From the NCBI GenBank assembly GCA_900316585.1, contig ONDM01000001.1:310001-374000 (forward strand): a stretch of 64,000 nt of DNA, in the 5' to 3' direction. A model generated the notes under the pieces. The model ran no database searches, was not told where the DNA came from, and saw nothing but the letters and a program-made list of their open reading frames with translations. This stretch comes from an uncultured Prevotellaceae bacterium. Lineage in GTDB: Bacteria; Bacteroidota; Bacteroidia; Bacteroidales; Bacteroidaceae. This document shows positions 40,707-60,142 of this stretch, piece by piece. Numbering within the stretch: position 1 is the stretch's first letter; every line of letters starts with the position of its first letter. The position numbers and the translations under genes are program-made.

Positions 40707-41009
40707 CTATTCAATACGTTTTCTATTGTACCATAATAATACTAGAGCAATTGCCACAATAACATCTACAATATTCCACATTGTTTTACCAAGAACTATC
40801 TTGAAGAAAGGTTGAAATAGCAAAGCAAGTGAACCTGCTATAACACACAGCGGCATCTTTTCATCTCTATAGAAGTTGAATGCCATACAACCAAAAATTA
40901 TCATTGCTGCGAATCTTACAAGACTGTAATAGCCATAAGGCATAGGAAATAAGCATGCAAGCAATGCAATAGCCAACACAAGTCCTATTTTGTAAATCAA
41001 ATTATCCAT
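40707..41009 (-). CDS. small 4-TM membrane protein, copy B
   Basis: A ~100-residue protein with four hydrophobic segments, near-identical in plan to the protein at 42094-42399: shared blocks are LFPMPYGYYSLVRF, FGCMAFNFY/KFY, SLALLFQPFFK, LGKTMWNIVDVIVA and LVLLWYNRKR. The start is placed at 41009 by alignment with the copy (MDNLIYK against MDNILYK) rather than the in-frame ATG at 41063. It resembles DUF6804-like membrane proteins. It is last in the operon, followed by the terminator. Role unknown. Confidence 0.75.
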   Translation of the reverse strand: MDNLIYKIGLVLAIALLACLFPMPYGYYSLVRFAAMIIFGCMAFNFYRDEKMPLCVIAGSLALLFQPFFKIVLGKTMWNIVDVIVAIALVLLWYNRKRIE

Positions 41010-41053
41010 TTTATCTTCTAATGTATCTATCAGTTTGATAATAATCTTAAGTT

Positions 41054-42073
41054 TTATTTCCACCCAGGAAACATCTTCTCCTTTATAAATTTAAACAACC
41101 TAGAACAATATTCAGGATTCTGAATTAAGAACCATAAATCGTCATCAAGAATAGCATATTTCACATTATCTGCAAGGAATTTAGCAGAAGGTGATTCAGT
41201 CTTAATTTCCTGACCATTAGTCCAGTGCAAATGCCAGAAACCATCATTATGGAGAAAATAGAAAGGATAGTCTATTTTTGTATTTCCTGGTCCATTAGCC
41301 CATTCAAAAACCTTGGAATAAAGAAGCCTCAGCTTATCATCCAAATAGATTTTACCATCTTTCAATCCACCCATCATGTGCTCAATCAAAACTGCACAGA
41401 TAAGCGCTGGTTTAGCTATAGCTTTCTGCCCTTCTACTGTAGCCCTGTTAACATTCAGAATCCTCTCCTCATACTCTAGTAAACATTTCTCATAATCATA
41501 ATGACGAAGAACTAACTTTGGTTCATGCTTTTCAGATGAATCAGGGAATCCCTCTTTTAAGAGTTCCTCCAGTTCTGAATCTGGACTCTTTTCTGGAGAA
41601 TCAGGCGTTTCAGATATTTCAGGTTTATTTGGCTCCAACTTAGTGAGATTGAACAGATAGCCTTTAAAAGTCTCAAAGAATGTTGCACGTTCTTTGGCTG
41701 AATAAATATCCTCCAGTTTGAGAATAACAGCTAATCTGGATCGACCCATATAATCCACAACCTCATTGATGCAACGTTTCTCCTTTTCCCATAAACGCTT
41801 CAGTTCTAATTCCTGCTGCTCAGTCCAGAATTCATTCCGATGAACATATATCTGTTTAATGGTAAGATTCTGATTACGGAGTTTAGCCTGACGTTCCGAG
41901 TCATCAAATTTTGACTCCATGCCAGACAAATAGCGCATTTGAGCCAATACGTCCATTTTTACACGACTCAACGTTTCTGCCACATCATACAGAGTCATGT
42001 CCTCTTTCAAGAGTTCTATCAGCTTCTTATTGTCCTGGTCTGTCCAGTTCCGGACACTGTGTCTTTTCTTCAT
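41054..42073 (-). CDS. protein with two Myb/SANT-like units and a restriction-enzyme-type recognition-like domain
   Basis: A 339-residue soluble protein. Residues about 1-50 (NWTDQDNKKLIELLKEDMTLYDVAETL) and 78-125 (FWTEQQELELKRLWEKEKRCINEVVDYMGRS) each look like a Myb/SANT DNA-binding unit. Residues about 225-310 contain KPALICAVLIEHM, IYLDDKLRLLYSKVFE and DYPFYFLHNDGFWHLHW. This is the pattern of the N-terminal domain of ScoMcrA-type and related HNH endonucleases, which in ScoMcrA binds phosphorothioate DNA. No HNH or other nuclease motif follows. A DNA-sensing or targeting role in the operon is inferred. It lies 20 bp after one small membrane protein gene and 44 bp before its copy. Confidence 0.55.
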   Translation of the reverse strand: MKKRHSVRNWTDQDNKKLIELLKEDMTLYDVAETLSRVKMDVLAQMRYLSGMESKFDDSERQAKLRNQNLTIKQIYVHRNEFWTEQQELELKRLWEKEKRCINEVVDYMGRSRLAVILKLEDIYSAKERATFFETFKGYLFNLTKLEPNKPEISETPDSPEKSPDSELEELLKEGFPDSSEKHEPKLVLRHYDYEKCLLEYEERILNVNRATVEGQKAIAKPALICAVLIEHMMGGLKDGKIYLDDKLRLLYSKVFEWANGPGNTKIDYPFYFLHNDGFWHLHWTNGQEIKTESPSAKFLADNVKYAILDDDLWFLIQNPEYCSRLFKFIKEKMFPGWK

Positions 42074-42093
42074 ATTAGATTAATTCTTAATGA

Positions 42094-42399
42094 CTATTCT
42101 TTTACTCGCCTTCTATTGTACCATAATAATACAAGAGCAACTGCCACAATAACATCTACGATATTCCACATTGTTCTACCAAGAACCACCTTGAAAAAAG
42201 GTTGAAATAGCAGAGCTAAAGAAACTGCAACTACACTGAGGATTATATTGTTTTCTTGGTAAAATTTGAATGCCATACACCCAAACACAATCATAGCCAC
42301 AAATCTAACCAAAGAATAATAACCATAAGGCATAGGAAATAAACATATAATTAAAGCTACTGCCAAACCTAGCCCCACTTTATAAAGTATATTGTCCAT
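42094..42399 (-). CDS. small 4-TM membrane protein, copy A
   Basis: A 101-residue membrane protein, MDNILYKVGLGLAVALIICL and onward, with the same blocks as copy B at 40707-41009. The DNA-level similarity of the two copies points to a fairly recent tandem duplication. It begins 32 bp after the nuclease gene, inside the same run of minus-strand genes. Function is unknown; by size and charge it could be a membrane partner or immunity-like protein for the nuclease. Confidence 0.78.
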   Translation of the reverse strand: MDNILYKVGLGLAVALIICLFPMPYGYYSLVRFVAMIVFGCMAFKFYQENNIILSVVAVSLALLFQPFFKVVLGRTMWNIVDVIVAVALVLLWYNRRRVKE

Positions 42400-42431: not shown

Positions 42432-43361
42432 TCAATGCCATTTTCCTAAATTGAACGTAGATTCTAACCGTTCTTCCAAACTGTCATCCAACTGATAGAA
42501 GAAGTCATATCCAGTTATTCTTTCTATATCATCTACAGAATAAGTGGCATTACCCATATTCTGTTTGCTGTTGTTATTATCATAATAAAAGCCTATTGCT
42601 TTCTCCTTTCCTGGATTAAGTGAAAGAACAACCTTAAAGAAACCTGTTGGAACGCTTACTTTACGGTAATGACCTATCTTCTTGATATTTCCAGAATAAA
42701 CAGGACCACAAACTATATATATCTGCCCCTCTTGTTTAGCCCATCTTCTGCAAGACTCTTCCACCTTATTCCAACCACCTGAATTTAAGTAATTGTCTTG
42801 AGGACAGATATTCGTCATATAAAAAGACTCATGCATAGCATTTAAATCCCATTTCACATCTGCAGCCGGACACATATGCCCCCTATCATAACCTAATCCG
42901 GTATATTCATCAGCTGTTATTCTATACTGTGCAGGTAGTTTAGGATCAACATCATAATCATTTGTTCGTCCATACCTGCCCGACACCCGTTCTCTATTTA
43001 AATACCAAGCCACCCAGTTGGGATTATTATGAATGGTATTATAAGATAGAGAAAAGGCAGTATGAGAAATTAATATTTCAGGATTGTCATTCAAACTTCT
43101 TGGGATTTCCAATCCATCCAATGTTTCAGAAACAACAGGCAGTTCTACAAGATCTGTTTCCTTAGGATTTAATGTTATAGTATTTAGATCTGTGTTATCT
43201 ACTTCTCCCTCTTCTTCAACAATAATTGGTTCCTCTTCTGTAAGCTCTGTTGTTTCTATATCTTCTCCATAGTCAGAATCGTTGTCATACGACATAACCC
43301 ATATGACTATAAAAAAGACTATCGCTATTAGACAGATTAGGACTATTGTTGACCGTTCCAT
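42432..43361 (-). CDS. membrane-anchored DNA/RNA non-specific endonuclease (NucA type)
   Basis: A 309-residue protein with one N-terminal TM anchor (VLICLIAIVFFIVIWVM, residues 7-23), an acidic linker rich in Glu (30-75) and a beta-beta-alpha-metal nuclease domain. The active-site motif is GYDRGHMCPAADVKWD (residues 158-173) with catalytic His162, and YMTNICPQDNYLNSGGW supplies the metal-binding Asn. The topology (short positively charged end inside) places the nuclease outside the cytoplasmic membrane. It starts 2 bp after the preceding gene in the motor operon, so it is a likely effector acting on DNA entering through the envelope. Confidence 0.9.
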   Translation of the reverse strand: MERSTIVLICLIAIVFFIVIWVMSYDNDSDYGEDIETTELTEEEPIIVEEEGEVDNTDLNTITLNPKETDLVELPVVSETLDGLEIPRSLNDNPEILISHTAFSLSYNTIHNNPNWVAWYLNRERVSGRYGRTNDYDVDPKLPAQYRITADEYTGLGYDRGHMCPAADVKWDLNAMHESFYMTNICPQDNYLNSGGWNKVEESCRRWAKQEGQIYIVCGPVYSGNIKKIGHYRKVSVPTGFFKVVLSLNPGKEKAIGFYYDNNNSKQNMGNATYSVDDIERITGYDFFYQLDDSLEERLESTFNLGKWH

Positions 43362-43363: not shown

Positions 43364-44218
43364 TTAATCCTCAAAATGACCAGCTATATACACGCCTTCC
43401 TCATTATAATACCCATTTACCCATGTCGAGGATAATTGAGGTATATATTGTTTGTTCACAACAGGTTTAATAGGCTTTCTTTGTTTACTCTCTTCATCTT
43501 CAAATAGGGACTTTTGAACAGGTTGTCCATGCTTTTTTGAAGATTTTGATTTCTTTCTTTCTAAGTTTGAATGATTGGCAGCCCAGCTTTCCATTTGATT
43601 TTGCAAATGCCTTTTATACTCAGTTTTGGGGCTGGAAGTCATAATTCCTACAAACAAGTCTCCTTCATTTTTTACATTACAAATCGTATGAGTAATGTAG
43701 TAACGTAGAGCATCATAATCAGCTATTAATTCATCATCATATGGTTCTCTTGTAGGTTCAGGCATTTCCTCTATAGGCAAGAATTCTTCAGCATTATCCA
43801 TTTCTTCTGAAAGCTCATCCTCAGAGTCTTCTGGTGATATGGCATCTTCTTTATCGAAAAATATAATTGGTTTCTTAACAATTTCATCTATTGTTTCAAT
43901 TGAAGGTTTTATATCTTCATCTACAACAGACTGTTCAGCCTCGTATTGCTTCTTTGCCTCTTTAGCTGCTTTCATTCTTGCCACGAAAGCGTCTTTTCTG
44001 GCCTTCTGGTCTAAATACTCTTTTTCGTCCTTTACACTTAAGTGAAAATTATACAAAAGACAAATAATGAAAATAAGACCTATCCCTACCGAAATCTTAA
44101 AGAAAAAGAAAGAGACAACCAGACCAAGAAGATATTTCAATATTACCCTCTTGGTACACATAGACTTCATTGCGTCTACCCTAGTTATTTGTGGTTTGTC
44201 TGTGTTTTTATCTGCCAT
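43364..44218 (-). CDS. membrane protein with acidic linker, motor operon
   Basis: A 284-residue protein. Two hydrophobic helices lie near residues 25-60 (VILKYLLGLVVSFFFFKISVGIGLIFIICLLYNF), followed by a basic coiled-coil-like stretch (KARKDAFVARMKAAKEAKKQYEAEQ), a long acidic region and a C-terminal WVNGYYNEEGVYIAGHF motif resembling the GYxRxxGtyVxGH short motif seen in other bacterial proteins. No enzymatic motif. It overlaps the MotB-like gene by 11 bp and precedes the nuclease by 2 bp, suggesting an adaptor between motor and nuclease. Confidence 0.72.
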   Translation of the reverse strand: MADKNTDKPQITRVDAMKSMCTKRVILKYLLGLVVSFFFFKISVGIGLIFIICLLYNFHLSVKDEKEYLDQKARKDAFVARMKAAKEAKKQYEAEQSVVDEDIKPSIETIDEIVKKPIIFFDKEDAISPEDSEDELSEEMDNAEEFLPIEEMPEPTREPYDDELIADYDALRYYITHTICNVKNEGDLFVGIMTSSPKTEYKRHLQNQMESWAANHSNLERKKSKSSKKHGQPVQKSLFEDEESKQRKPIKPVVNKQYIPQLSSTWVNGYYNEEGVYIAGHFED

Positions 44219-44981
44219 TCAATTTTTCTATCTTCTCCTTAGTTACATCTATATTTCCTATCACTGGAACTATATGAACCAAGAATCTCTGATTTCGCGA
44301 TTCAATAGCCTCCCACTGAGTACGTCTTTCCCTTTCACTTAGATTCCTTAGTGATGTACTGTCGGGTATGATTCTAGGAACACCGTCTTCACCACTACCA
44401 GAAATAATCAACTCACATTTAGGTATTGCTGCAAAATCAATACCGTTCTCTTTCCAGAATTTGTTGAGAAACTGAGCCCTCAGATAAGACAGTGTATAGT
44501 TATTCTTCCAATCACCCTCATCAAACCTAATCTTAGAAGATTGTCCTTCAATTACAACCAAGAATTTGATATTGTTCTTTACTGTATCATTCTCATTTGA
44601 TTCAAGTGAAAGGATCTTATCTTTGATTAATTGACCTGCAGTAAGAATACTATCTCGCTTTAGTTCTGCCTGAGAAGAATCTATCCTATCCAGTTTCAGT
44701 TTGTCCATATGATACTCACCCATCTGATATTCCACATCCACTGTAAAAAGATGCTTCAAATAAATATCATCATAACGGAAATAACGGGTTGAATCTATTG
44801 CACCTACCGTAGAATAGACAGTAATGATATTCTCATATTCATCCACCAAACTTTGAAGTTGCTTTTCCTTGACTTTAAACCGGTTAAAAGAAACAGCAAA
44901 AAGAATAAGTGTTATGGCAAACAAAGTTGTCATAATATCTACATAACTAGGCCAAAAGGAACCTTTTTCTTTACGACTCAT
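44208..44981 (-). CDS. MotB/ZorB-like stator protein with OmpA-type peptidoglycan-binding domain
   Basis: A 257-residue protein. The N-terminal KGSFWPSYVDIMTTLFAITLILFAVSF matches the MotB/ZorB plug and single TM helix with the conserved proton- or ion-binding Asp (D15). The C-terminal part (FLVVIEGQSSKIRFDEG, NYTLSYLRAQFLNKFW, CELIISGSGEDGVPR, RNQRFLVHIVP) has the order of an OmpA-like peptidoglycan-binding domain, with a linker of ~100 residues between. Its start shares one base with the stop of the MotA/ZorA-like gene. Together they should form an ion-driven rotary unit anchored to the cell wall. Confidence 0.82.
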   Translation of the reverse strand: MSRKEKGSFWPSYVDIMTTLFAITLILFAVSFNRFKVKEKQLQSLVDEYENIITVYSTVGAIDSTRYFRYDDIYLKHLFTVDVEYQMGEYHMDKLKLDRIDSSQAELKRDSILTAGQLIKDKILSLESNENDTVKNNIKFLVVIEGQSSKIRFDEGDWKNNYTLSYLRAQFLNKFWKENGIDFAAIPKCELIISGSGEDGVPRIIPDSTSLRNLSERERRTQWEAIESRNQRFLVHIVPVIGNIDVTKEKIEKLNGR

Positions 44982-46687
44982 TACTGTTTCTTACTTCCAA
45001 ACAAATTACCAAACAATCCAGCATTCTCTCTGTTTTTCAACAGTTCTGATATTGCTACTGTATTTGCATCTAGTTTATCCAGGCTAGGTTTTAAAGCATT
45101 CACTCTCTGTTTCAGTGAATCCAATTCATTATAAAGTAATCCAAGGTCTTCTGATAAGCTTTTCGACTTAACCGATTCTGTTTTTAAATCATTAATCTTT
45201 GAAATCAGGGAATTCAGATGCGAATCCAATTCATTTAGGCTAGAACTTATATCATTCAACTTCTTCAGATTAGAGAAATCCTGATGAATCTCATCCAGTG
45301 AAATCTTTTCATCCATTTTCTCCATAAAGAACTTAAGACGCTTGGATACTTCTTCATTATAATAATCAAGCATCTTTTCATATCCCTCCATATGTTCATC
45401 AAGAGCAGCACTATATTTCTTGTTCATTTCGCCTATTACCTTCACCTGCTCTTTATAGAGGTTCTCCAGTTCATCATCTGCCTTTTCTAAGAAACTATCG
45501 GCAATCTTGCTCTTCTTGGATATACCGTTAATCTGGTCTTGGAGCTTATTCACCACATCATTTCCTAGAATCTCCCTCTTATTAAGTTCACCTCCCAGTC
45601 TGTTGATGTTTTCCTCAAAATCTTTAATACGGTTAAGGATTTGATTGACTTTAACTGCCACCTCTTTTGGAACTTCCAGAGAATGGGTATAATCTTCCTG
45701 CATCTTAATGGTTTCCTGAGCAGCAGCAAGCATCATACGCCTTGCCTGTTCAAACTTATTCAGAGATTGAGTGATACCCACAAAGTGATCTGAAGCTTCA
45801 ATATATTTTTCCATTCCTTTCACCAGCCTGTCACTTTGCATAGTTGTAATTAGCTGCTTCTGTAAGGCTATATTTTCATTAATCTTGCCCATGTTTTCTC
45901 CCATAGCCTTAACTGCATTAGCTACCACATTTACATTGGCACCAAAATCTTTACCAAAAGCCTCAACCAATTCTTTGAAGGTTCCATTAAACTGCTTAAT
46001 AATTTTTGAAAATGCTGGTTCAAATTTGTCTACTGTTTCATGGAGTTTTGAGACAGACTTCATCAAACTTACTTCAAAATTCTTGATTATTTCAGTTTGA
46101 ATGAAATCATAAAATTCGTTCTTTTTCTCTTCTACAACTTTATCCTCTTCACTAGCATTTTTATTGTTACGAGTAGTAAGTCCCAAACCAATTAAACTAG
46201 TTATCATAGAAACGAGTACACCCAACAATAGATTACGAATAGAATCATCAGAAATTCCTTCGTTTCCACTAAGTCCAAATAGGAACATAAGAATTCCCAG
46301 GAAAACTCCCGCAAATGTACCCATCAGTCCATAATAAGTAGGAAAAGATAGTTTTGATACGGATTCATCATAAAGAACCCCAAAAACTCGTTCTGTCTTA
46401 TTTTGAATTATGGTAAAATCTACAGTGCCCTTAGTTTTTTCAATATAAGAATTGATTTTGCTTACTAATCCATTATAATCGTCATACCCTTCAATTTCTG
46501 GTAATTGCTTGTAAGAATCTCCTGTTTCAGTATTTTCAACTTCTATAGGCATTCCGAAATCCTTAGGAAAAAACTTTTCACATCTTTTCCTATTCTTTTT
46601 CGTTTCCTGAAAAGAGGAACACTGGAGCCAAAAAAAGAATGCAGCAACTACTATTGAAATAATAAGAGTTAAAAAGAAATCAGACAT
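44981..46687 (-). CDS. MotA/ZorA-like channel protein with long coiled-coil tail
   Basis: A ~568-residue membrane protein. One TM helix lies at the start (FFLTLIISIVVAAFFFWL), a short cytoplasmic section follows, and then two helices SFPTYYGLMGTFAGVFLGILMFLFG and RNLLLGVLVSMITSLIGLGLTTR, the arrangement of MotA/TolQ/ExbB and of ZorA of Zorya anti-phage systems. From about residue 185 to 560 it is predicted coiled coil, like the intracellular tail of ZorA. The ATG at 46687 is used; an in-frame TTG at 46693 is unlikely. It sits between the ATPase gene (2-bp gap) and the MotB-like gene. Confidence 0.82.
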   Translation of the reverse strand: MSDFFLTLIISIVVAAFFFWLQCSSFQETKKNRKRCEKFFPKDFGMPIEVENTETGDSYKQLPEIEGYDDYNGLVSKINSYIEKTKGTVDFTIIQNKTERVFGVLYDESVSKLSFPTYYGLMGTFAGVFLGILMFLFGLSGNEGISDDSIRNLLLGVLVSMITSLIGLGLTTRNNKNASEEDKVVEEKKNEFYDFIQTEIIKNFEVSLMKSVSKLHETVDKFEPAFSKIIKQFNGTFKELVEAFGKDFGANVNVVANAVKAMGENMGKINENIALQKQLITTMQSDRLVKGMEKYIEASDHFVGITQSLNKFEQARRMMLAAAQETIKMQEDYTHSLEVPKEVAVKVNQILNRIKDFEENINRLGGELNKREILGNDVVNKLQDQINGISKKSKIADSFLEKADDELENLYKEQVKVIGEMNKKYSAALDEHMEGYEKMLDYYNEEVSKRLKFFMEKMDEKISLDEIHQDFSNLKKLNDISSSLNELDSHLNSLISKINDLKTESVKSKSLSEDLGLLYNELDSLKQRVNALKPSLDKLDANTVAISELLKNRENAGLFGNLFGSKKQ

Positions 46688-46689
46688 AA

Positions 46690-49600
46690 TCAAATCTTGG
46701 TCATTTCAAATACACGGTTAATAATAGGCAGGAAGAAGACTGTATCAAACAACATATCCTCATCGCTATATTGTTCCCTTACTTCAGTCTTGAAATAGGT
46801 ATCAAATGGAGTACCCATATCTTCACCAGCACAATCAGCATAAACCTTTGGATTTATTGTATCGTCAAGGATACCAGCCGTTTTCATCTTATCAAGAACC
46901 TTCTTGTATAGATTTGACAAATTCTTATATTTACTTAATAATGTGGCTTTTAAATTATCATAATCTTTAATCAAATCATCTACTTTCACGTATTTACCAG
47001 CAGAATCACATTGATAAACAAATTCAGGAACAGCCTCTGCATCTGAAGAACGATAAAGTCCACCATAGCATGTAGACTCTTTCCTTTCCTTTGGAAGTTG
47101 CAAGCTCACATCATTCTTTCCACCAAAAACTTCATCAAAAACAGTGTCTACTATTTCCTTTAGAATTCTTTTGTCAGAAGAAATGAAACTGTCTATATAC
47201 TTACTACCATTTCCACTGAAAACAACTGTTTTTGGAGCCATCAGGTTCTGGTCCTTATACATATTTGCCATATAGAAAAGGATGGAGACAAAGTGATATA
47301 TGAAAAGTGGCTTATACTCATCACGAAGAGACTTAACTATATCACAATGGCTGGAATTTCCTAACCAGAAATTAATGATATCCTTGGTTTTAACCAAAGT
47401 GTCAAGTTTCATACTATCATTTAGATCCTCCAAATCTTTTCTATCGAATCTAATAGTATCTTTATACTTATTATAAATACCATTTTCCCTGGCATTTTCA
47501 AAATCCACAAAACCATTGTCCCAAAGCACATCACAACCGAAGTGAACAGAATTAGCCATCTTTGGCTTATTGTCCTGGAAATAGACAAAATCAGTAGAAC
47601 CACCACCAATATCTATCACTGATACGGCATCAGAATTCGGAATGATATTCTTCTTCTTGAAATAATAATATGGAGCCTCTGATTCTGAGAAGCAATCTAC
47701 CTGACTAGGCTGGATGAACAGAATATCTTCTGGTTCCTTATGCCAAATGTCTTCATACATACTCCGGATAGTTCCTCTGAAACTCAATGGCTTAAACCAT
47801 ACCAAACGAGTACGATTTAAATCACCGTTGCGCTGCAAAATATCACACTTGATAATCAGCAGAAGCTCACGTACAAAAATCTTTAATTTAGCTTCATCTT
47901 TCTCCCATTTAATATCCGTATAAATAACCTGATCATTGTTTGACATCAATTTCTCATAGAAGAAAGCTATGTTATGATTATCAAACAACTTAGGTTTATT
48001 TGCATTACTCCTTATTGCACATAAAGCTGTTCGGATAGGGAATTTATAATCCTTACCATCAATAATTGCAGGAAGAAATTCAGTCTTAATCTTATTCCTT
48101 GCCTGAAGGAAGATTGAATCTTCAATGCACCTATTTGTAGAGAGCTGACTATCTTTCAAAGGCTCATGCAGGAAGTTTACTATAGGTTTTTCTACAGTAA
48201 AAAGTTCTGGCAAGTTGTTTTCTCCATTCTTACACCGTGAAATGAAAGTATTTGATGTACCTAGGTCAATAGCATAAGTATACGTATCATTGGTACGTTC
48301 ACTCCTATTCCACACAGGAATCAAAAGACCCGTATCACCGTGCAGGTTTATCTCCATTGCATCGAATGAGGTATTAAACAGCTCATAGAATTTTGTACCT
48401 CCATCTACAGAAGTACTCTTTTGACGAGAACGGACATATGGTGGGCAGGTACCAAACTCCACATTTTCAGTAGGGTCTACCTCCTTTATCGGAATAAAAT
48501 CTTTTCCAGAATTCTTAAAGAAAGTCAAGCTTATATTATCCACATTAAGATTAGGAGCCTCTGCATCCTCATCGGCTGCCACCAGCATTACCTTAAAATA
48601 GTTATTCTCAGCTTCATTATATGATAATATGTTCGGGAATAAACCTAAATCAAAGTTGACCCTTGCTGCTCTTAGATTAATAATACGGCCCTGAGAAGAA
48701 TTTACAGGATCCTCATTATAAGTCTTCTTATATTCTTTGTTATTATATTTCAGGGTAACCGTTATATCATTCCTGCCGATGTGAACTTCAGAATCAATCT
48801 GCTGGCCATCATAGAGATTAAGGATTTCCGGTTTAAATGGAAGAAGATAATCGTAATCCCTTTCTTTTTTGTCATTCTTATATTTTACTGCTATAAAATT
48901 GTCCCGAGAGATACGGTATGGAACTTTGATAATGGTTCTGTTGAAATAGCTCATGATATCAAGAGCATCTGAAGATTTGAATGTCAACCCATTAACAACG
49001 AGTGGATCATTCTGGTCTGTCATGACATCGGCTAGCTTCAAATGATAGTCATTACGGATTTCCACGTCATCCTTAAATGAACGGATATATTCTTTAATAA
49101 ACCTATATCTACCATCCAGAGAATCAGAAGAAAACAGTTCATTATACATATAGTTCTTGAAATCAGCATCACGCTCTCCGAATAGTTTAATATCACGGAA
49201 ATACTCCCCACCTGATTTTCTTCTTATATGGAGGTTCTCATACTGTGAACCAGAAAACTTATAACTAATCGTATTGTTTTTCTTTACTATGGATTTGTCC
49301 ATATCTGGAGGTGTGACAAAACCTGTAAGAGGAGAGCTACAAGCCAAAAGCTTATCCTTTCCATCTTCTGTATAGACAAGGAAATACAGTTTATCTTCTT
49401 TAATATCCGTACTATAGTAATTGTGAATAGAATTATAAAGTACAGGCATCTTATCCTTTATGACTTTAAGATTTTCCTCACTCTTCCATTCTCTCAACTC
49501 TATTTTCTGCCCCTTAGTGAACGTATTATTATTATGATACTTCAAATTGAAAAGCAGTTCATAAACATCCAGAATATCAGACACAAGCTGCCTATAAGCA

Positions 49601-49830
49601 AAACCAGCTTCTTTTTTACTATCCTTATTTTCTTCCGTGACACGACGAAAAGCCTCTTTAGCCACAAAGAAACGAGCAAAAGGCGTTGGCAATGAGTTCA
49701 GAGCACCACAGTTATCTGTCTTTTGCTCCATCACCTCATCCAAGTGGTCAGCAGTTAGTCCTACATTTTCTGCAATCCAATCTGTTCCCTGAATACCACG
49801 GTCTACTATATTCAAATCTATTCTTGCCAT
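46690..49830 (-). CDS. giant actin/Hsp70-like ATPase
   Basis: A 1046-residue cytoplasmic protein. The second half holds an actin/Hsp70-fold ATPase: phosphate-1 AIDLGTSNTFIS (about residue 518), phosphate-2 SVIDIGGGSTDFVYF (about 737) and adenosine motif VVFSGNGSKYIDSF (about 869). The first ~510 residues are unlike any domain I recognise, with beta-rich character in the middle. The overall plan recalls the virulence-factor SrfB family, which also carries an actin-like ATPase in a very large protein, but this is a tentative comparison. It lies between the tubulin-like gene (6 bp) and the ZorA-like gene (2 bp). Confidence 0.82.
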   Translation of the reverse strand: MARIDLNIVDRGIQGTDWIAENVGLTADHLDEVMEQKTDNCGALNSLPTPFARFFVAKEAFRRVTEENKDSKKEAGFAYRQLVSDILDVYELLFNLKYHNNNTFTKGQKIELREWKSEENLKVIKDKMPVLYNSIHNYYSTDIKEDKLYFLVYTEDGKDKLLACSSPLTGFVTPPDMDKSIVKKNNTISYKFSGSQYENLHIRRKSGGEYFRDIKLFGERDADFKNYMYNELFSSDSLDGRYRFIKEYIRSFKDDVEIRNDYHLKLADVMTDQNDPLVVNGLTFKSSDALDIMSYFNRTIIKVPYRISRDNFIAVKYKNDKKERDYDYLLPFKPEILNLYDGQQIDSEVHIGRNDITVTLKYNNKEYKKTYNEDPVNSSQGRIINLRAARVNFDLGLFPNILSYNEAENNYFKVMLVAADEDAEAPNLNVDNISLTFFKNSGKDFIPIKEVDPTENVEFGTCPPYVRSRQKSTSVDGGTKFYELFNTSFDAMEINLHGDTGLLIPVWNRSERTNDTYTYAIDLGTSNTFISRCKNGENNLPELFTVEKPIVNFLHEPLKDSQLSTNRCIEDSIFLQARNKIKTEFLPAIIDGKDYKFPIRTALCAIRSNANKPKLFDNHNIAFFYEKLMSNNDQVIYTDIKWEKDEAKLKIFVRELLLIIKCDILQRNGDLNRTRLVWFKPLSFRGTIRSMYEDIWHKEPEDILFIQPSQVDCFSESEAPYYYFKKKNIIPNSDAVSVIDIGGGSTDFVYFQDNKPKMANSVHFGCDVLWDNGFVDFENARENGIYNKYKDTIRFDRKDLEDLNDSMKLDTLVKTKDIINFWLGNSSHCDIVKSLRDEYKPLFIYHFVSILFYMANMYKDQNLMAPKTVVFSGNGSKYIDSFISSDKRILKEIVDTVFDEVFGGKNDVSLQLPKERKESTCYGGLYRSSDAEAVPEFVYQCDSAGKYVKVDDLIKDYDNLKATLLSKYKNLSNLYKKVLDKMKTAGILDDTINPKVYADCAGEDMGTPFDTYFKTEVREQYSDEDMLFDTVFFLPIINRVFEMTKI

Positions 49831-49836
49831 ACCCTT

Positions 49837-51234
49837 TTACTTATTGATTTTACTTGTGTAATAATTAATAGCATCATACGCAAACTGCAGGAAATACCTG
49901 AACTTGTTGCTATGCTTGTCCGATTTGTCTTTATTGCTGGCTTTAATCATTTCCAACAAATAATAAGAATCATCTTTTGCATCCAGTTCCAAGCCAACAA
50001 TCCAGCCTGACATTTTCTGCAGATCATCGTAATGCAGAGGTGCGAAAGCACGCTTGTTTTGAGCTAGTTCTGAATACCACTTATTATAAATGGCATTAAA
50101 ATGCTCAAGTGCTTTAAATGGTTCATCCTTATAAAAAGATTCATTGAACCCCCGGTTCTTTTTCAGAGGGAAATACTTTTCTTTAGGCAGTTCACCAGCC
50201 AATGCACTAAGCAACATATAATCAGCTACAGATTTGACCAACGGATCATAGCCTTTACCTAATGAGCTCCGGTCCAAAGAATCCACATCCTTCTCTATTG
50301 CACGTGACAGAAATTGTCTGGTTTCAGGCTTCTCTCGTTTCAGGAAATCAAACAAGGCAGACGCAGCCACAAGTTCTATGAAATTAGCTTTGTCATCCTG
50401 TTTCTTCTCATCATTCTCATAAACCTGTTTCAGCGTTTTCTCACCTATATAGTAGAGATAGTCTGATAGTACTGTTCCTTCATAATAAGCCAATGCAGAT
50501 TTTGTCTTTGTATAGAAATTAGCAGAATCAATATCACTGTTAGTTGATGCTGGATCTTTCAAACCATAATATGGCAAAACAGTAACAGCTCCCATCAATG
50601 CATTTTTAACTGCAGGCTCATTCTCTGCTCCCTTTATTTTCTTTTCCAGAAGTGGATATCCAGAAGCTCCAGTACCTCCAAAGATTGAACTAATAATGAA
50701 GATTCTATCATCTTTTTCACAATGGATTTTAAAGGCCTTAAACCAATCTGCGCCTTCTATCATCTCACCCAGGACTACGGTTCCCATGTTTGGATTTCCC
50801 TTGAAACCAACAGAGAGTTGACTGTCCAAATTCTTGGAGGAATATAGTGTCTCCACCAGATAATTATTAATGTCATCAGCTCTTAAATTAGAAGTCTTGA
50901 TGTAAGAACTGAATTTTTCCTTACTTCCTACTGGCTCTTGTGTATCATTGGACTGGTTGTTCAACTGGCTTAGTAGTTTTATCTCAGAATTAAAGAAACC
51001 ATCCAGAGGATTCAACGTTGACGTGCCATTATTGATGGAGTTTTTATAGATATTAATATAACTGTCCAACAAGGAATGCAGGTTCTTTTTCTCCTCTAAA
51101 TCAAGATGAGGATCTAGAATGATAGGAACCACTGTATATCCATTGGTGCTCATACCACCAGCCATGAGCATGGTTATACTCTTCATTACTCGGATTCCGG
51201 TTCCACCCACACAGAAAACAAATACTTTTTTCAT
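49837..51234 (-). CDS. tubulin/FtsZ-like GTPase
   Basis: A 465-residue protein. Residues 8-15 (CVGGTGIR) are the nucleotide-binding N-terminal glycine loop, and ISSIFGGTGASGYPLL (residues 181-196) corresponds to the tubulin/FtsZ signature GGGTG[ST]G. It is therefore probably a member of the tubulin-like families (Tubulin_2-type) rather than FtsZ itself: no other cell-division gene is near, and length and C-terminus differ. It could polymerise or serve as a GTP-dependent switch for the neighbouring actin-like ATPase and motor. Gaps to both neighbours are 6 bp. Confidence 0.8.
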   Translation of the reverse strand: MKKVFVFCVGGTGIRVMKSITMLMAGGMSTNGYTVVPIILDPHLDLEEKKNLHSLLDSYINIYKNSINNGTSTLNPLDGFFNSEIKLLSQLNNQSNDTQEPVGSKEKFSSYIKTSNLRADDINNYLVETLYSSKNLDSQLSVGFKGNPNMGTVVLGEMIEGADWFKAFKIHCEKDDRIFIISSIFGGTGASGYPLLEKKIKGAENEPAVKNALMGAVTVLPYYGLKDPASTNSDIDSANFYTKTKSALAYYEGTVLSDYLYYIGEKTLKQVYENDEKKQDDKANFIELVAASALFDFLKREKPETRQFLSRAIEKDVDSLDRSSLGKGYDPLVKSVADYMLLSALAGELPKEKYFPLKKNRGFNESFYKDEPFKALEHFNAIYNKWYSELAQNKRAFAPLHYDDLQKMSGWIVGLELDAKDDSYYLLEMIKASNKDKSDKHSNKFRYFLQFAYDAINYYTSKINK

Positions 51235-51240
51235 ATTGAT

Positions 51241-51684
51241 TTAGATTTTAAAGATTCTATACGCATTGGTAGGTAGCAAATTGCACCAAATAAATGAAAC
51301 TATAAGATAAATCCCAACTGAATAAAGGGCATTTCCAAATGCTATTTTCAATTCCAATGAAACTGCCCCAGACAAATGTGGAGGACATAATAGATATTCA
51401 ATACCAAAGGTTACCAAAAAACATATAATAAAAGTAGCTAACAGATAAATTAACCAATCTTTAGGTTTATAATGTCTTCCAGGTTTATTATTCCAATAGG
51501 TATAATAGGTAACTGCCAGCACGGCACCTAAAAAAATAAAAAGAAATACAATAAACAATGAATAGCCCTCCAAACTTCTCCAGAACTTTCTTGCCTCATT
51601 AAGAAGTTCTTCATTCTCTCTGAATGGTTTACTAAAATCGGATACAGTTCCTATAAGCCATTTATATAGCTCCAGCAGTTTCAT
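51241..51684 (-). CDS. three-TM membrane protein, motor operon
   Basis: A 147-residue membrane protein with helices near LFIVFLFIFLGAVLAVTYYTYW, LIYLLATFIICFLVTFGIEYLL and ALYSVGIYLIVSFIWCNLL, and an N-terminal ~40-residue amphipathic segment. The ATG at 51684 is preferred to the TTG at 51690; it lies 2 bp after the preceding stop. I recognise no family. Its position between the vWA-like lipoprotein and the tubulin-like GTPase suggests it links envelope and cytoplasm. Confidence 0.72.
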   Translation of the reverse strand: MKLLELYKWLIGTVSDFSKPFRENEELLNEARKFWRSLEGYSLFIVFLFIFLGAVLAVTYYTYWNNKPGRHYKPKDWLIYLLATFIICFLVTFGIEYLLCPPHLSGAVSLELKIAFGNALYSVGIYLIVSFIWCNLLPTNAYRIFKI

Positions 51685-51686
51685 AA

Positions 51687-52955
51687 TCAATAATTTTTAG
51701 ATACCAATATATAATTATAATCCATTTCCTTGTTCACAACTCCTCCTTGGAACATTCCAACAATGAAATTATCCACAGAATAAGACTTTGTTACATCATC
51801 CTCATTATCACCGCCTAGATAAGCACCAAACCTGCTTATATTCAAATCCGGTAATTTCAGGGTCCATTTTATCACTTCTGCTTCAAGTGGCATGTTATAC
51901 AGCTTCAGTTCTACTGTAGCTACAACCTTGCGATCTAACTTCTGATTAGTGATATTCTTGACATCCATAGAAACCAATTTTGTCTTTACAGAAGAGCCAT
52001 AAGTCGTCTCCACCTGAAGAGCCTCGTTGAATACATTCTCATCAGTAAGAATCCAACGGTAGTTCTCCAAATTAACTTTTAACTTAATTGTACAAGTATC
52101 ACCGTCAGCATGCTCCTCGTAACTAGTGAAAGTAGGTTCATCCTCCATCTGGTCACACATAAATGAGATTCCGAAAGAATGAGTTGGAGAGCCAAACTTA
52201 AAACCTGTCTCTATATTATCAATAAAATGACCACTATCCTCCAAATAAGTAGAAATACAATTTCTTACAGAAGCCACTTTTTCCTGATTACCTAAAACCA
52301 GAAAATAATATGGAGAATTCTCATAAACCACATTTCCCTTTTTATCCAGATATTCCGATGTGGCACCTATAAGTGAAACGGCCTGCTTAGCTTCACCCAA
52401 AAGTTTGCTGATATCAGAACTATATTGAGTAAGCAGAACCTTAGGAGCTGCAGAACCCACAGGACTATATTTCATATCAGAAATCAGTACAGCCACTCCC
52501 TCAGGATTTTCAGCTAAATCATCTAAGATAGTTTTCAGCATCAAAGGAACTTTAGTAGAAGCCGTAGAAACAAAAGCTCCCGTATTCATCATAGTCTGAA
52601 ATTTAGGTAGAGCAATGCTCATCCCCTGAGTGCCATCATTGGTGAGTACATTCACTTCAGGAATCAATGGCGAATAATAGCTTAGTATACGCCATACATC
52701 TGTTTTAAACTGTGTAGGTTGATTAGCACGAAAGAAGCCATTCATACTTCCTGAAACCTCTACATAAACTTTCAAATTTGTAGGATCTTGAACAGTAAAG
52801 GCAGGCACTGCATTTGCACTATCTTTTATCAAATAACCATCTTCTGTGAAATGAGAGTCAAAAACTGCATTCACATTTCCAGAACAGGAAAAAAACAAAG
52901 AGCCGAAGAAGAATACTACGGCTAAGGTTCTGAATAATATAAAGATTTTCTTCAT
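51687..52955 (-). CDS. vWA-like lipoprotein, first gene of the motor operon
   Basis: A 422-residue lipoprotein: signal MKKIFILFRTLAVVFFFGSL with lipobox LFFSC. The first ~190 mature residues look like a von Willebrand A domain: VYVEVSGSMNGFF is the metal site with Glu in place of the usual Asp of DxSxS, and GVAVLISDMKYSP carries the later Asp. The C-terminal part is beta-rich (IKLKVNLENYRWIL, RKVVATVELKLYNMP). It is periplasmic or surface-located and probably senses or binds a partner. It heads the operon; no two-box promoter was found in the 324-bp gap upstream. Confidence 0.78.
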   Translation of the reverse strand: MKKIFILFRTLAVVFFFGSLFFSCSGNVNAVFDSHFTEDGYLIKDSANAVPAFTVQDPTNLKVYVEVSGSMNGFFRANQPTQFKTDVWRILSYYSPLIPEVNVLTNDGTQGMSIALPKFQTMMNTGAFVSTASTKVPLMLKTILDDLAENPEGVAVLISDMKYSPVGSAAPKVLLTQYSSDISKLLGEAKQAVSLIGATSEYLDKKGNVVYENSPYYFLVLGNQEKVASVRNCISTYLEDSGHFIDNIETGFKFGSPTHSFGISFMCDQMEDEPTFTSYEEHADGDTCTIKLKVNLENYRWILTDENVFNEALQVETTYGSSVKTKLVSMDVKNITNQKLDRKVVATVELKLYNMPLEAEVIKWTLKLPDLNISRFGAYLGGDNEDDVTKSYSVDNFIVGMFQGGVVNKEMDYNYILVSKNY

Positions 52956-53279: not shown

Positions 53280-54476
53280 TTAATCATTTCTTTTTTGATT
53301 GTGCGGATTAACATAATGGAAATTTATGTACTCCTCACCTATTTTATCTATATCATCATAAGGGCACCAAGTACCGATATTTGTTCCACAGAACAACCAA
53401 ATACTTCTCTGCTCATAAGGATAACGAGAATCATACATCCAGCCATACGCACCATCAAAATATCTAACATTTCCTTCCTCAAATTCAGGATGATTTAAAG
53501 AACCCCCAAATTGACTAATAAAATTTGGATTATGCTGCAAATTTCCATACACAATTCTTTCCTGAAGCCAAAGTAGCTTTGAATTATCTTTTTTATCAAA
53601 TACATTATAAGGATTCTCTTCCTCTCCCATAAAGTAAGCAAAGTACTTTTCTGGTCCATGTCCTAAAGGAGCCCATTTCAGATACTTGTCAATTGTCTTT
53701 ATTGCTTCAGCCGGACCAAACTCATCCTGCACCTTTTCAGCCTCTTTCTTGAAATGGCAAAGTATCAAGTTTGTAAGAGACAAGGAAACCTCCTTGGCCT
53801 TAAAGAATTCCGTCAGATGAATTTCCTTAATATATTCATATTTAGCAGCAAAAGAATTATAGCTTATACAAAGTTCCTTTGCCCATTCTCGTTCAAATTC
53901 CCAAATCTTCCTTCTCCAGACCAACACTGGAGCATAGCACATTTCCCAAGGATTCTTTTCCCCATTATAATAACGACACTTCTTGAGCAATCCAGGAAGC
54001 CGTTCTGCTGTCCTAACCTGAAGATGAGTGGGTGTGCTGCAATAGCTATTTTTATACCACTGACGGAACGATTCTATACCCTCTGGTGTAACATAATCAT
54101 CTAAAACCCAATGGACATATCTATTATAAAATAGAGCCTTTAGAGTCCTAGGAGTCACATCATCATCACTATCCAGACTATCCTTTAAATCATAATCATA
54201 TTCTGCCAATCTACCTTCTTCGTTAACACCTTCTACACGTTCCTTAACCCAACAACCCTCATAAAAAAAAGCAGTAGCCCCCATCGATAGTTTTTCTACT
54301 TCTTCTTGAGGAATATCATATTCATCCTGCTCATGTATATTCTTAGCAGGTTTTACTATGTGCGATGAAAGTAATGTATGAAAAGGGTTATCCTTTTCCC
54401 CATTATAATAACGGCAGTAAAGGATAGCACGCTTTCTTTTATCTGCTTTAGTATAGTTTGGAGTGAATTGATTCAT
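53280..54476 (-). CDS. unknown protein with repeated YYNGEKxNP motif, third gene of RM operon
   Basis: A 398-residue soluble protein, start taken at the ATG 54476 because an upstream frame would run into the restriction gene. The motif CRYYNGEK(D)NP occurs at residues 21-31 and 167-176, and a weaker form, FMGEEENPY, at 282-290, so the protein may consist of three related units. Aromatic residues are abundant. No catalytic motif or family was recognised. The 19-bp gap to the Sau3AI-type gene suggests it is part of the restriction system, perhaps an accessory or control protein. Confidence 0.65.
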   Translation of the reverse strand: MNQFTPNYTKADKRKRAILYCRYYNGEKDNPFHTLLSSHIVKPAKNIHEQDEYDIPQEEVEKLSMGATAFFYEGCWVKERVEGVNEEGRLAEYDYDLKDSLDSDDDVTPRTLKALFYNRYVHWVLDDYVTPEGIESFRQWYKNSYCSTPTHLQVRTAERLPGLLKKCRYYNGEKNPWEMCYAPVLVWRRKIWEFEREWAKELCISYNSFAAKYEYIKEIHLTEFFKAKEVSLSLTNLILCHFKKEAEKVQDEFGPAEAIKTIDKYLKWAPLGHGPEKYFAYFMGEEENPYNVFDKKDNSKLLWLQERIVYGNLQHNPNFISQFGGSLNHPEFEEGNVRYFDGAYGWMYDSRYPYEQRSIWLFCGTNIGTWCPYDDIDKIGEEYINFHYVNPHNQKRND

Positions 54477-54495
54477 ACTATTAATCAAAAGGATT

Positions 54496-55992
54496 CTACT
54501 TTTTTTTAAACAATTCTCCCTGAACCCAACTATCAGCAGCTTTTTCATAATTAACAGGTTGTGAACTAGTAGAATATGGCACTGATTTCAAATGCCTGTT
54601 AACAATGTTAAGTATATATTGCCTGTTTAACCAATACCCTCTTTTTAATTGTGGGCCATAAGGAGTATCCATTTTATCACTTGAATCCTTGGCTTTTGGT
54701 CTTACATGACATATTTTATCATCAGATATTGAGATAAAATGTTCAAAATCCCCTTTCTTAATTTTATCCTTTGTATCTAGCCAAAACAACTTAGCTGTTT
54801 CCAAGTCTTTGGGAGGCATTGTCCAAAAGAATACTTTTTCTAGTTTAGCCAACTTATCAATGTCACTGCTATCTTTTCTGAAAACGATGAATAGGAATCT
54901 TTGTGTAAGAATCTGGTACCACTCAGAATCTTCCCATCTTTCCTCATTTACAATTTCGTTGTATTTGATTTGGGAAAAGACCATACTTTCTTTTAAGTTT
55001 CCATTACTCTCTAAACGAATGGTTTTCTGTTGTAGATTGGCTTTTTCAAACTCTGCTATCTTTGGAGTCTTAACCCCTAAAATGGCATGCACTACTGCAT
55101 TAGAAATAGCTTTAGGACTGAAAGTAAACACAACTCTCAGCTTTGTTTCTATTTCCTTTATAGTCTTTCCGTAATATGGCTTAAATTTTCTTTCTACAAG
55201 TTCTTCAAATGTTTCTGACTCCTGATATTCATCAACGGATTTAACAAGGCTAGAAACCTCATTAATAGCTTTTTCTATTTTCTTCTTCTGTGATTTACTA
55301 ATATATAAGCCACTACACATCTCTGGATGAAGCAGAGACTCTAAAATAATGGAATTTAAATACTTAGATTTTAAGGAATAAGCTCTTTGGTCTGCAAGTT
55401 CGTTAGAGTTTTTTTGTTTGCGTTTCTCTGCACCCGACTTTGAACCTTTAGTACAAGCACCTAAATATAGCGTATCTCCTTCTGAAATTTCGTGAGCAAG
55501 TCCATGCGTCAGCTTATAATGAATCTTTTCCCAATCGTCTTTTATAATCTTCAAGTCAGTTTCAGGGAACTTCCACAATCTTATAATCTTGAATACAAGA
55601 TCTATTACATTAACCCCCTTTTCATGAAGATAGAACATCAAAAGAAGATGCTGGTTTTTATGCCAGAAACTACTGGTCTCGAATGTATTATCTGCCTCTT
55701 TTAAATAATCAATGATATTAAGAACCAATCGTTCTTTTGATACCATACTCCCATCATCAATTTGCTTTAAAGGAGTACATTTAAGTTCTATACCAACTTC
55801 ATCAAAATCGGGTTTAGCCTCACTGTTTGGCTCATAATTGAAATGATATTTCTCTACACATTGACCTAAGCGTCCCTTCCCTGTATAAAGAGAGGATACT
55901 TCTGGATGCAATTCTCTAATACTTCTACCTAATAACTTTCTGGCATATTCAAGTATAGAAGCTTCGGAAGACCTATCAAACAATTTGTCCAT
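54496..55992 (-). CDS. Sau3AI/MutH-family type II restriction endonuclease
   Basis: A 498-residue enzyme, close to the length of Sau3AI, which cuts GATC. The N-terminal MutH-like domain has the catalytic set KPDFDEVGIELKCTPLK (Asp62/64, Glu69, Lys71) and the preceding GKGRLGQCVEKYHF. The second half repeats a MutH-like fold without the catalytic set (for example EFEKANLQQKTIRLESNGN and following), as in Sau3AI. GATC specificity is inferred from the family. It starts 1 bp after the methyltransferase stop, so expression of both is linked. Confidence 0.9.
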   Translation of the reverse strand: MDKLFDRSSEASILEYARKLLGRSIRELHPEVSSLYTGKGRLGQCVEKYHFNYEPNSEAKPDFDEVGIELKCTPLKQIDDGSMVSKERLVLNIIDYLKEADNTFETSSFWHKNQHLLLMFYLHEKGVNVIDLVFKIIRLWKFPETDLKIIKDDWEKIHYKLTHGLAHEISEGDTLYLGACTKGSKSGAEKRKQKNSNELADQRAYSLKSKYLNSIILESLLHPEMCSGLYISKSQKKKIEKAINEVSSLVKSVDEYQESETFEELVERKFKPYYGKTIKEIETKLRVVFTFSPKAISNAVVHAILGVKTPKIAEFEKANLQQKTIRLESNGNLKESMVFSQIKYNEIVNEERWEDSEWYQILTQRFLFIVFRKDSSDIDKLAKLEKVFFWTMPPKDLETAKLFWLDTKDKIKKGDFEHFISISDDKICHVRPKAKDSSDKMDTPYGPQLKRGYWLNRQYILNIVNRHLKSVPYSTSSQPVNYEKAADSWVQGELFKKK

Positions 55993-55993
55993 T

Positions 55994-57364: not shown

Positions 57365-57442
57365 ATTTATAGTATTTCACAATTTCTTGCAAAGATAACA
57401 TTAAAATATTTAGGAGAGAAATTTATCACTCAAATTGGGTAA

Positions 57443-57868
57443 TCAAAAAATAATAAATTTAATAAGGATAAAAACCATACAAGCCAAGGTTGGGATTCCG
57501 TAAAAAACAACCAACGTAAATGAGAACATTGTTTTAAAAACTATACCACAGTTTACATTTCTTGGATTAAGTCCATATTGTCCTTCCAAATTATCAACTT
57601 TACGTTTTTCAAGCATATCTTCATACATTTTTCTGTATTTCATTTCTGTGTGAAGATAAAAAGTATCGAGTACCCAAAAACATATAAAAGGAATAAATGT
57701 AGTAAACAAGAACAAATTAAAGGTACCCAAATTAGCTCCTTTTGTAAATACAGTAGCACCTGCAAATAAAGTTAAAGCCCAACCTTTTATCATAAAGGAG
57801 TTTTGAGCCATCCTGCTAATGCAACTTTGTAATAAATCTATTTCTTTAAACAATTCATCCTTATCCAT
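57443..57868 (-). CDS. multi-TM protein paired with TIR protein (candidate effector)
   Basis: A 141-residue protein with three or four hydrophobic helices: MIKGWALTLFAGATVF, NLFLFTTFIPFICFWVLDTFYL and FSFTLVVFYGIPTLACMVFILIKF, with a charged cytoplasmic loop (TEMKYRKMYEDMLEKRKVD) between. It begins 2 bp after the TIR gene, so the two are almost certainly a unit. In Thoeris and related systems TIR proteins make a nucleotide signal that activates an effector; a small membrane protein could be a pore-forming effector here. That is inference. Confidence 0.72.
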   Translation of the reverse strand: MDKDELFKEIDLLQSCISRMAQNSFMIKGWALTLFAGATVFTKGANLGTFNLFLFTTFIPFICFWVLDTFYLHTEMKYRKMYEDMLEKRKVDNLEGQYGLNPRNVNCGIVFKTMFSFTLVVFYGIPTLACMVFILIKFIIF

Positions 57869-57870
57869 AA

Positions 57871-58539: not shown

Positions 58540-58703
58540 AAATAATTAATTTAATACGCTACAAAATTGCACAACTATTTTGCCAAACTATGTCAATTGG
58601 ATTGTATTTATAGTTAACTAATATTAAATACCTATGGACATTGAATGAAACTTTGAATAGGAACTAAAGTAATAAAATTATTCTCTCGTAATAATATTTT
58701 TAC

Positions 58704-58711
58704 TAACTTTG
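58704..58711 (+). promoter_or_regulatory. -7 box for the SIR2 gene
   Basis: TAACTTTG matches TAnnTTTG; it lies 87 bp before the SIR2 start. No TTTG at 19-21 bp was seen. The 259-bp divergent region 58540-58798 is extremely AT-rich and shows no other clear element. Confidence 0.4.
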
Positions 58712-58798
58712 AAACATAATAAATATACTATTAGAATTGTAACTATTATTAGTTATATTAGTTGGCTTTCTATATTAATGAACTAAATTAATAATAAT

Positions 58799-60134: not shown

Positions 60135-60142
60135 TATATTTG
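60135..60142 (+). promoter_or_regulatory. -7 box for mcrBC
   Basis: TATATTTG matches TAnnTTTG, 47 bp before the mcrB ATG; the nearest TTTG (60101-60104) is 30 bp upstream. Confidence 0.45.

What the first reader, a model, noticed from the sequence alone, without database searches (positions are those of the whole stretch)
41054..42073. Myb-like repeats fused to a restriction-enzyme-type recognition domain without a nuclease
The C-terminal KPAL...DYPFYFLHNDGFWHL pattern resembles the DNA-recognition domain of ScoMcrA-type HNH enzymes (phosphorothioate binding in ScoMcrA), preceded by two W-T...-type Myb/SANT-like units. No HNH is present. It may recognise modified or foreign DNA on behalf of the operon's nuclease.
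Basis: partly seen in the sequence, partly recalled or inferred. Interest (0 to 1): 0.62.

Follow-up and report, generated by a model that had tools for sequence, protein, structure and literature searches.

The report
Nuclease-free Myb–sulfur-binding-domain DNA reader
A Bacteroidales-type bacterium carries, at the end of a defence-like operon, a DNA-reading protein that joins two Myb-like units to a domain of the kind that feels sulfur in DNA backbones, but has no cutting domain; its closest relatives often sit inside sulfur-modification defence systems, whereas this bacterium shows no sign of making that modification itself, so the protein may watch for foreign sulfur-marked DNA.

Summary
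Observation confirmed. The ORF at 41054-42073 (- strand, 339 aa) has a C-terminal sulfur-binding domain (SBD) and two N-terminal Myb/SANT-like units, and no nuclease. SBD evidence: NF045808 E 7.6e-8; PDB 8h0l E 4e-13; AlphaFold model pLDDT >90, Z 19.7 to 8h0l and 13-15 to SprMcrA and ScoMcrA SBDs. Pocket lysine (K221) and Tyr-Pro (Y269-P270) are kept; the canonical histidine (ScoMcrA H116) is alanine.

That "AKP" variant marks a nuclease-free SBD group (14 of 34 tree rows). 11 of 15 distinct AKP loci lie beside phosphorothioate (PT) writers: 8 in type-4 BREX, 3 in Dnd-like operons. The window is not such a case: its genome shows no PAPS-reductase, DndC-like or BrxP gene and no second SBD. The gene lies between two DUF6804 copies in the variable 3' part of a vWA-tubulin-actin-MotAB-like operon and is absent from 19 of 19 fetched relatives.

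Best reading: an orphan PT-DNA reader used against non-self DNA. The SBD identity is near certain, PT binding is likely but untested, the output is unknown. A partnership with the operon's nuclease is weakly supported: that nuclease looks exported and occurs in relatives without this gene.

The parts
41054..42073 (-). Myb-SBD gene, 339 aa, nuclease-free
   Evidence: ORF
41699..42073 (-). N-terminal half, residues 1-125: two Myb/SANT-like units (W10-T11 and W83-T84)
   Evidence: low-confidence models
41498..41638 (-). linker, residues about 146-192, rich in acidic residues, mostly low pLDDT
   Evidence: sequence and model
41057..41497 (-). sulfur-binding domain (SBD), residues about 193-339
41408..41416 (-). 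A220-K221-P222: place of ScoMcrA H116-R117; K kept, H replaced by A
   Evidence: residue roles from PMC6224610 (passages)
41264..41269 (-). Y269-P270: place of ScoMcrA Y164-P165 (lid and floor of the sulfur cavity)
   Evidence: PMC6224610 passages
42094..42399 (-). DUF6804 copy a, just upstream in the same direction (20-nt gap)
40707..41009 (-). DUF6804 copy b, just downstream; 81% identical to copy a over 241 nt (start taken at the ATG aligned with copy a)
42432..43361 (-). DNA/RNA non-specific endonuclease (PF01223), N-terminal membrane anchor, probably extracytoplasmic
   Evidence: E 1.2e-53; location inferred from sequence
44208..52955 (-). conserved operon core: vWA protein, membrane protein, tubulin-like, actin-like, ZorA/MotA-like, ZorB/MotB-like
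   Evidence: FtsZl1-type system of PMC2875224 (passages); the name vWA is from sequence reading and relatives, no profile match

Best explanation
The gene encodes a cytoplasmic, nuclease-free reader of phosphorothioated (PT) DNA. Its C-terminal SBD binds DNA as a winged helix and probes one backbone position with a pocket built from K221, Y269 and P270, while the tandem Myb-like units grip neighbouring DNA and add affinity or sequence preference. Because the host seems to have no PT writer, PT-DNA would be non-self: plasmid, conjugative or phage DNA coming from the many PT-modifying Bacteroidota. Binding would then block or flag that DNA, or change expression or activity of the defence genes beside it. 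Shown: the SBD fold and homology, absence of a nuclease, pocket K and Y-P kept and H lost, kinship with SBDs of type-4 BREX and Dnd-like loci, no PT-writer hit in the assembled genome. Inferred: sulfur binding, bivalent DNA grip, anti-non-self role. Unknown: the output step.
For: SBD sequence and fold. Pocket. AKP-type SBDs beside PT writers: 8 type-4 BREX loci (L064, L068-L073, L130) and 3 Dnd-like operons (L065, L066, L075), together 11 of 15 distinct AKP loci. Nuclease-free SBD-Myb combinations arise a second time, in Dnd-like operons (L018, L020, L065; SBD first, Myb at residues about 339-398). No PT writer in the own genome: PF01507 0 hits while the control rings in 14 of 14 genomes, DndC-like profile 0 hits while G039 and G027 are found, BrxP only a 45-aa ferredoxin-like match at E 0.0098. 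PT-modified Bacteroidota are abundant in the one gut donor mapped by PT-seq (PMC11931770, passages). The neighbourhood is defence-like: Sau3AI and methyltransferase, ThsB- and ThsA-like, McrB-like.
Against: H116, called one of the most conserved pocket residues (PMC6224610), is Ala here; in the papers seen no AKP-type SBD has been tested for sulfur binding. The window's SBD is on a long branch (1.47) and nearest to the orphan and Dnd-linked subgroup, not to the BREX ones. The Myb half is weakly supported by profiles and models. The gene is absent from 19 of 19 fetched relative operons, so the operon does not need it. No other genome with this domain order was found: none among the 12 other genomes with SBD hits of 393 searched or the 10 others of 150. 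The assembly is about 95% complete, so a missed PT writer is possible.
Confidence: 0.5

Rival explanations
1. The SBD fold is kept but sulfur sensing is lost: the protein is an ordinary two-part DNA-binding regulator (Myb-like plus winged helix) of the operon or of a mobile element.
For: H116 replaced by Ala; host without PT-writer hit; long SBD branch; SBD was reinterpreted as a winged HTH in PMC10853773 (section 17 read); last-but-one position in a same-strand gene run.
Against: K221 and P270 are kept through the group, and 11 of 15 AKP loci sit beside PT writers, which would be odd if AKP meant no sulfur binding.
Confidence: 0.25
2. One reading: the protein marks modified or foreign DNA for cleavage by the operon's own non-specific nuclease.
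For: Same strand, small gaps: 20 nt to DUF6804a, 32 nt from there to the nuclease.
Against: The nuclease has an N-terminal anchor and a relative has a lipoprotein-like signal, so it is probably outside the cytoplasm. L045 and L062 have the nuclease without Myb-SBD. DUF6804 lies between them.
Confidence: 0.1
3. Stranded cargo: an SBD from a lost PT system fused to a Myb-like module and inserted between duplicated DUF6804 genes, with little present function.
For: Flanking DUF6804 copies 81% identical over 241 nt; absence from 19 of 19 relatives; broken relatives exist (L017, L075).
Against: The reading frame is intact over 339 codons and the SBD core is conserved with a confident fold.
Confidence: 0.1
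4. Reader of the host's own PT marks, the writer lying in the unassembled 5%.
For: AKP SBDs usually neighbour writers.
Against: Where a writer was seen it is in the same operon, and the window flanks contain none; whole-genome searches are negative.
Confidence: 0.05

Closest known systems
SBDHga1 (PDB 8h0l), SBD solved with PT-DNA
   Same: Best sequence match (E 4.2e-13; 7.8e-20 with profile A1) and best fold match (Z 19.7, rmsd 2.2, 142 residues)
   Different: Has the canonical H-K pair at the pocket (alignment); only the domain was solved
ScoMcrA and SprMcrA, PT-dependent type IV restriction enzymes
   Same: SBD fold (Z 13.3-14.8); pocket Lys/Arg and Pro
   Different: ScoMcrA carries HNH, SRA and H116 (PMC6224610, passages); the window protein has none of these
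Standalone SBD genes between brxP and brxC of some Bacteroidales type-4 BREX loci
   Same: AKP motif, no nuclease, 28-39% identity in pairwise comparisons
   Different: 139-148 aa, no Myb units, next to PT writer genes; only 1 of 4 assessable BrxP loci in a BrxP-driven sample has it
Nuclease-free SBD-Myb proteins (626-743 aa) of Dnd-like operons (L018, L020, L065)
   Same: SBD and Myb-like unit in one protein, no HNH found
   Different: Reverse domain order, HKA pocket, PT writers alongside, extra regions
FtsZl1 (tubulin-like) plus vWA operons, PMC2875224 (passages)
   Same: Tubulin-like and vWA genes, membrane and OmpA/MotB-type proteins
   Different: Myb-SBD is not a conserved member: 0 of 19 fetched relatives

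Membership tests
SBD (ScoMcrA-type sulfur-binding domain) | fold of solved SBDs | tested here: met
   Foldseek and VIA-align: the seven best entries are all SBDs, Z 19.7 down to 13.3, then a drop to 9.5
SBD (ScoMcrA-type sulfur-binding domain) | pocket Lys/Arg (R117) and Pro (P165), with Tyr lid (Y164) | tested here: met
   K221, P270, Y269
SBD (ScoMcrA-type sulfur-binding domain) | pocket His (H116), one of the most conserved | tested here: not met
   A220; Ala in 14 of 34 tree rows, all in one group with support 90/88
SBD (ScoMcrA-type sulfur-binding domain) | Rp-PT-specific DNA binding | not testable with these tools
   needs a binding assay
PT-dependent type IV restriction endonuclease | HNH nuclease domain in the same chain | tested here: not met
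   no HNH by Pfam or NCBIfam; NF045808 matches only positions 3-139 of 284, 31.8 bits against a cut-off of 180
Myb/SANT DNA-binding repeats | three-helix unit with spaced aromatic residues | tested here: inconclusive
   sub-threshold Pfam matches here and in homologues, repeats alike, models of low confidence
Type-4 BREX component | BrxP, BrxC, PglZ, BrxL alongside | tested here: not met
   none recognised among the window genes from 34 kb on; no BrxP in the genome
FtsZl1/vWA operon core gene | conserved presence | tested here: not met
   0 of 19 fetched relative loci hold an SBD (E<=1) or the Myb half (E<=1)

The most novel reading that the evidence does not exclude
A non-self phosphorothioate sensor without a cutter: an AKP-type SBD with Myb-like units, in a host that cannot make PT, recruited as an exchangeable sensor or regulator module of a vWA-tubulin-actin-MotAB-like conflict system. 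It would belong to a wider class of nuclease-free PT readers that some type-4 BREX and Dnd-like systems carry next to their writers.
Probability: 0.3. Interest if true: 0.75.

Novelty: new variant of a known kind. Interest (0 to 1): 0.5.

Why it matters
The SBD-type PT readers described in the passages read here are restriction enzymes that cut. A group of SBDs with a changed pocket and no nuclease, often sitting beside PT writers in type-4 BREX and Dnd-like operons, would be candidate self/non-self readers in systems whose discrimination step is not understood. The window protein shows the same module outside any writer, so a simple binding test (PT against plain DNA, with K221 and P270 mutants) would say whether the altered pocket still feels sulfur, and thereby inform the whole group.

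Tried and rejected
Close relatives of the full protein in genome contigs and viral contigs: none. Myb half in viral contigs and plasmids: none. Plasmid search with the full protein: 9 records, 7 of them annotated HNH endonuclease under the match, 2 hypothetical; the matches cover only the SBD. Plasmid search with a type-4 BREX SBD (L068): 10 records, none in Bacteroidales. One phage-collection hit (MT835963) proved to be a type-4 BREX locus on an unverified faecal scaffold, so it is not evidence for a phage origin. The AKP profile in viral contigs gave one locus, L091, which has an HKP pocket.

Rejected: the idea that a PAPS-reductase search alone settles the absence of PT writers. A Dnd-like gene of L065 gives no Pfam match, so the test was repeated with a DndC-like profile and with BrxP. 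Rejected: the idea that an SBD is a standard part of type-4 BREX; starting from BrxP, 1 of 4 assessable loci has it (L131 yes; L132, L133, L134 no; L135 cut off). The count of 8 is a biased one, since those loci were found through the SBD. A fold search with the Myb half alone was not run: the model is too poor (mean pLDDT 50.5). Literature: searches listed no paper whose title or abstract start names a nuclease-free SBD, an SBD-Myb fusion or an SBD gene in type-4 BREX. The library holds only part of the literature; the study cited there on PT by type-4 BREX (PMC12914056) is not held, so an earlier description cannot be ruled out.

Rows dropped: of the 35 SBD rows, 9 with an aligned stretch of 100 residues or fewer were left out of the tree. 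Of the order-search loci, L093, L094, L095, L097, L098, L100, L101 and L102 were entered, L099, L103 and L104 were not, and L096 is the same place as L017. In AKP context counts, L074, L078, L016 and L017 are left out because the motif cannot be read there. Of the 23 tubulin-like places (own genome included), 19 were fetched besides the window; G125, G226 and a second place in G100 were not.

Full report
Observation. The ORF at 41054-42073 on the - strand is open for 339 codons. Its C-terminal part is a sulfur-binding domain. NCBIfam NF045808 matches residues 201-336 (E 7.6e-8), PDB chain 8h0l matches 197-320 (E 4.2e-13), and a four-row profile of the group finds 8h0l alone in the PDB (E 7.8e-20). 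Pfam found no family in the full-length protein at E up to 1. Against a profile built without it, the domain scores 107 bits and the best of 1000 shuffles 8.7.

Fold. An AlphaFold2 model from 20 rows (window protein and loci found by the search for related loci) gives pLDDT above 90 over nearly all of residues 191-330. Foldseek's first ten hits are all SBDs. VIA-align puts 8h0l at Z 19.7 (rmsd 2.2, 142 residues), SprMcrA at 14.7-14.8 and ScoMcrA at 13.3-14.3; the next fold, archaeal Cdc6/ORC, is at 9.5.

Pocket. In ScoMcrA the sulfur cavity is made by H116, R117, Y164, P165 and A168; R117K is tolerated, while P165N and R117A abolish binding (PMC6224610, passages). The window protein has A220-K221-P222 and Y269-P270 at the two key places. 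By counting from the proline, the A168 place holds F273; that position is described as less conserved. So the pocket is largely kept, but the histidine is lost. The paper's H116I mutant binds 94% less, explained by an added gamma-methyl; an alanine adds no such group. Whether Ala works is unknown.

The AKP group. In a tree of 34 SBDs, 14 rows have Ala-Lys-Pro and 20 have His-Lys. The 14 fall together with support 90/88, short of the usual 95. Apart from the window protein all 14 are 139-174 or 179-189 aa, too short for an added nuclease. The window SBD is on a long branch beside L093, L094, L012, L065_9962 and L066 (86/93).

Contexts. Standalone AKP SBDs lie between the PAPS-reductase gene (BrxP) and BrxC, followed by PglZ and BrxL, in 8 loci: L064, L068, L069, L070, L071, L072, L073 and L130. 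They lie in Dnd-like operons in 3 loci: L065, L066, and L075, where the SBD gene is broken into two pieces. Four other AKP loci have no PT writer seen beside them: the window, L067 (helicase and PP2C neighbours), and L128 and L129 (one genus; Mrr-like and Fic neighbours in L093). That is 11 of 15. The sample was gathered through the SBD itself; starting from BrxP, 1 of 4 assessable loci has the SBD. Type-4 BREX is stated to make PT (PMC12839542 and PMC11931770, passages). In the passages of PMC12839542 found by word search and in section 17 of PMC10853773, no standalone SBD is described.

A second SBD-Myb combination. Three Dnd-like operons (L018, L020, L065) carry a 626-743 aa protein with an HKA-type SBD at the N-terminus and a Myb-like unit at residues about 339-398 (PF00249 E 0.0005-0.004, below Pfam's cut-off), with no HNH found by Pfam. 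Their operons carry a DndC-like gene, a helicase matching TIGR04095 (E 3.5e-115, below that model's cut-off; scanned in L020 and found by homology in the other two) and an AAA_23 ATPase. In L065 an AKP SBD follows directly. The pairing of SBD and Myb-like unit without a nuclease thus occurs in two different layouts.

The Myb half. Residues 1-125 hold two units starting at W10-T11 and W83-T84 that resemble each other (1 of 2000 shuffles as good). Homologues exist in few genomes: 4 of 301 in the family including the own genome, among them L015_8789 and L106, whose Pfam matches are Myb (E 0.0035 and 0.012, below cut-off). Structure prediction of this half is poor. I call it Myb-like, not Myb.

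Host. The own genome (2.96 Mb, 19 contigs, completeness 94.7%) has a single SBD. PF01507 has no hit, while all 14 control genomes ring. A DndC-like profile has no hit, while G039 and G027 give E below 1e-200. BrxP gives only a 45-residue ferredoxin-like match at E 0.0098. So there is no sign of a PT writer, with the caveat of completeness and of unknown writers.

The operon. Upstream on the same strand lie a vWA-like protein, a small membrane protein, a tubulin-like, an actin-like, a ZorA-like and a ZorB-like protein; the vWA label rests on my reading of the sequence, as no profile matched it. The tubulin-like gene is found in 22 of 249 genomes. Of 19 fetched relatives, the actin-like gene is recognised in 19 and both ZorA- and ZorB-like genes in 8. 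Genes after this core vary: the nuclease in the window, L045 and L062; trypsin-like peptidases in L052, L056 and L062; a caspase domain in L062 (only 10 such proteins were scanned). No SBD and no Myb-like match occurs in these 19 loci. This resembles the FtsZl1 type of system (PMC2875224, passages), there proposed to act in membrane remodelling; effector-like partners suggest a conflict system, which is my inference. The Myb-SBD gene sits between two DUF6804 genes that are 81% identical over 241 nt, which suggests insertion of a cassette at, or together with, a duplication. DUF6804 genes of 17 other genomes (18 of 200 with the own one) showed no SBD, Myb half or nuclease in the short flanks fetched.

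Nuclease link. The nuclease starts with a hydrophobic segment followed by acidic residues, and the L062 version has a lipoprotein-like start. I infer export.

Verdict. It is a real SBD and a new variant: AKP pocket, Myb-like partner, no nuclease, and a host with no detectable PT writer. The most likely role is reading PT on non-self DNA (0.5), with loss of sulfur sensing as main rival (0.25). The wider point, a group of nuclease-free SBDs beside PT writers, is probably the more useful outcome.

Noticed in passing
L064, L068, L069, L070, L071, L072, L073, L130: A small SBD gene (139-148 aa, AKP pocket) lies between brxP and brxC in type-4 BREX loci of Bacteroidales; a candidate PT reader of these systems.
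   Followed up: partly
L018:993-2897, L020:7324-9555, L065:8010-9890: Long nuclease-free SBD-Myb proteins in Dnd-like operons; in L065 a second, AKP-type SBD gene follows directly.
   Followed up: partly
window 44208-52955 and relatives L045-L063: vWA-tubulin-actin-ZorA/ZorB-like operon with variable 3' genes (nuclease, trypsin-like, caspase-like) looks more like a conflict system than housekeeping membrane remodelling.
   Followed up: partly
window 53280-63752: Defence island: Sau3AI-type enzyme with C5 methyltransferase, ThsB-like and ThsA-like genes, a small PDC-M50A membrane protein, McrB-like gene and a neighbour. A 422-aa protein (53280-54548) between Sau3AI and the operon has no NCBIfam or PADLOC match.
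   Followed up: no
L067:36-10459: An AKP SBD closes a gene run with a 1739-aa protein (faint helicase matches), PP2C phosphatase, two small proteins and a UvrD-like helicase; possibly another defence system.
   Followed up: no
window 40707-42399: Two diverged DUF6804 genes flank the Myb-SBD gene as direct repeats, as if the gene had been inserted with a duplication.
   Followed up: partly
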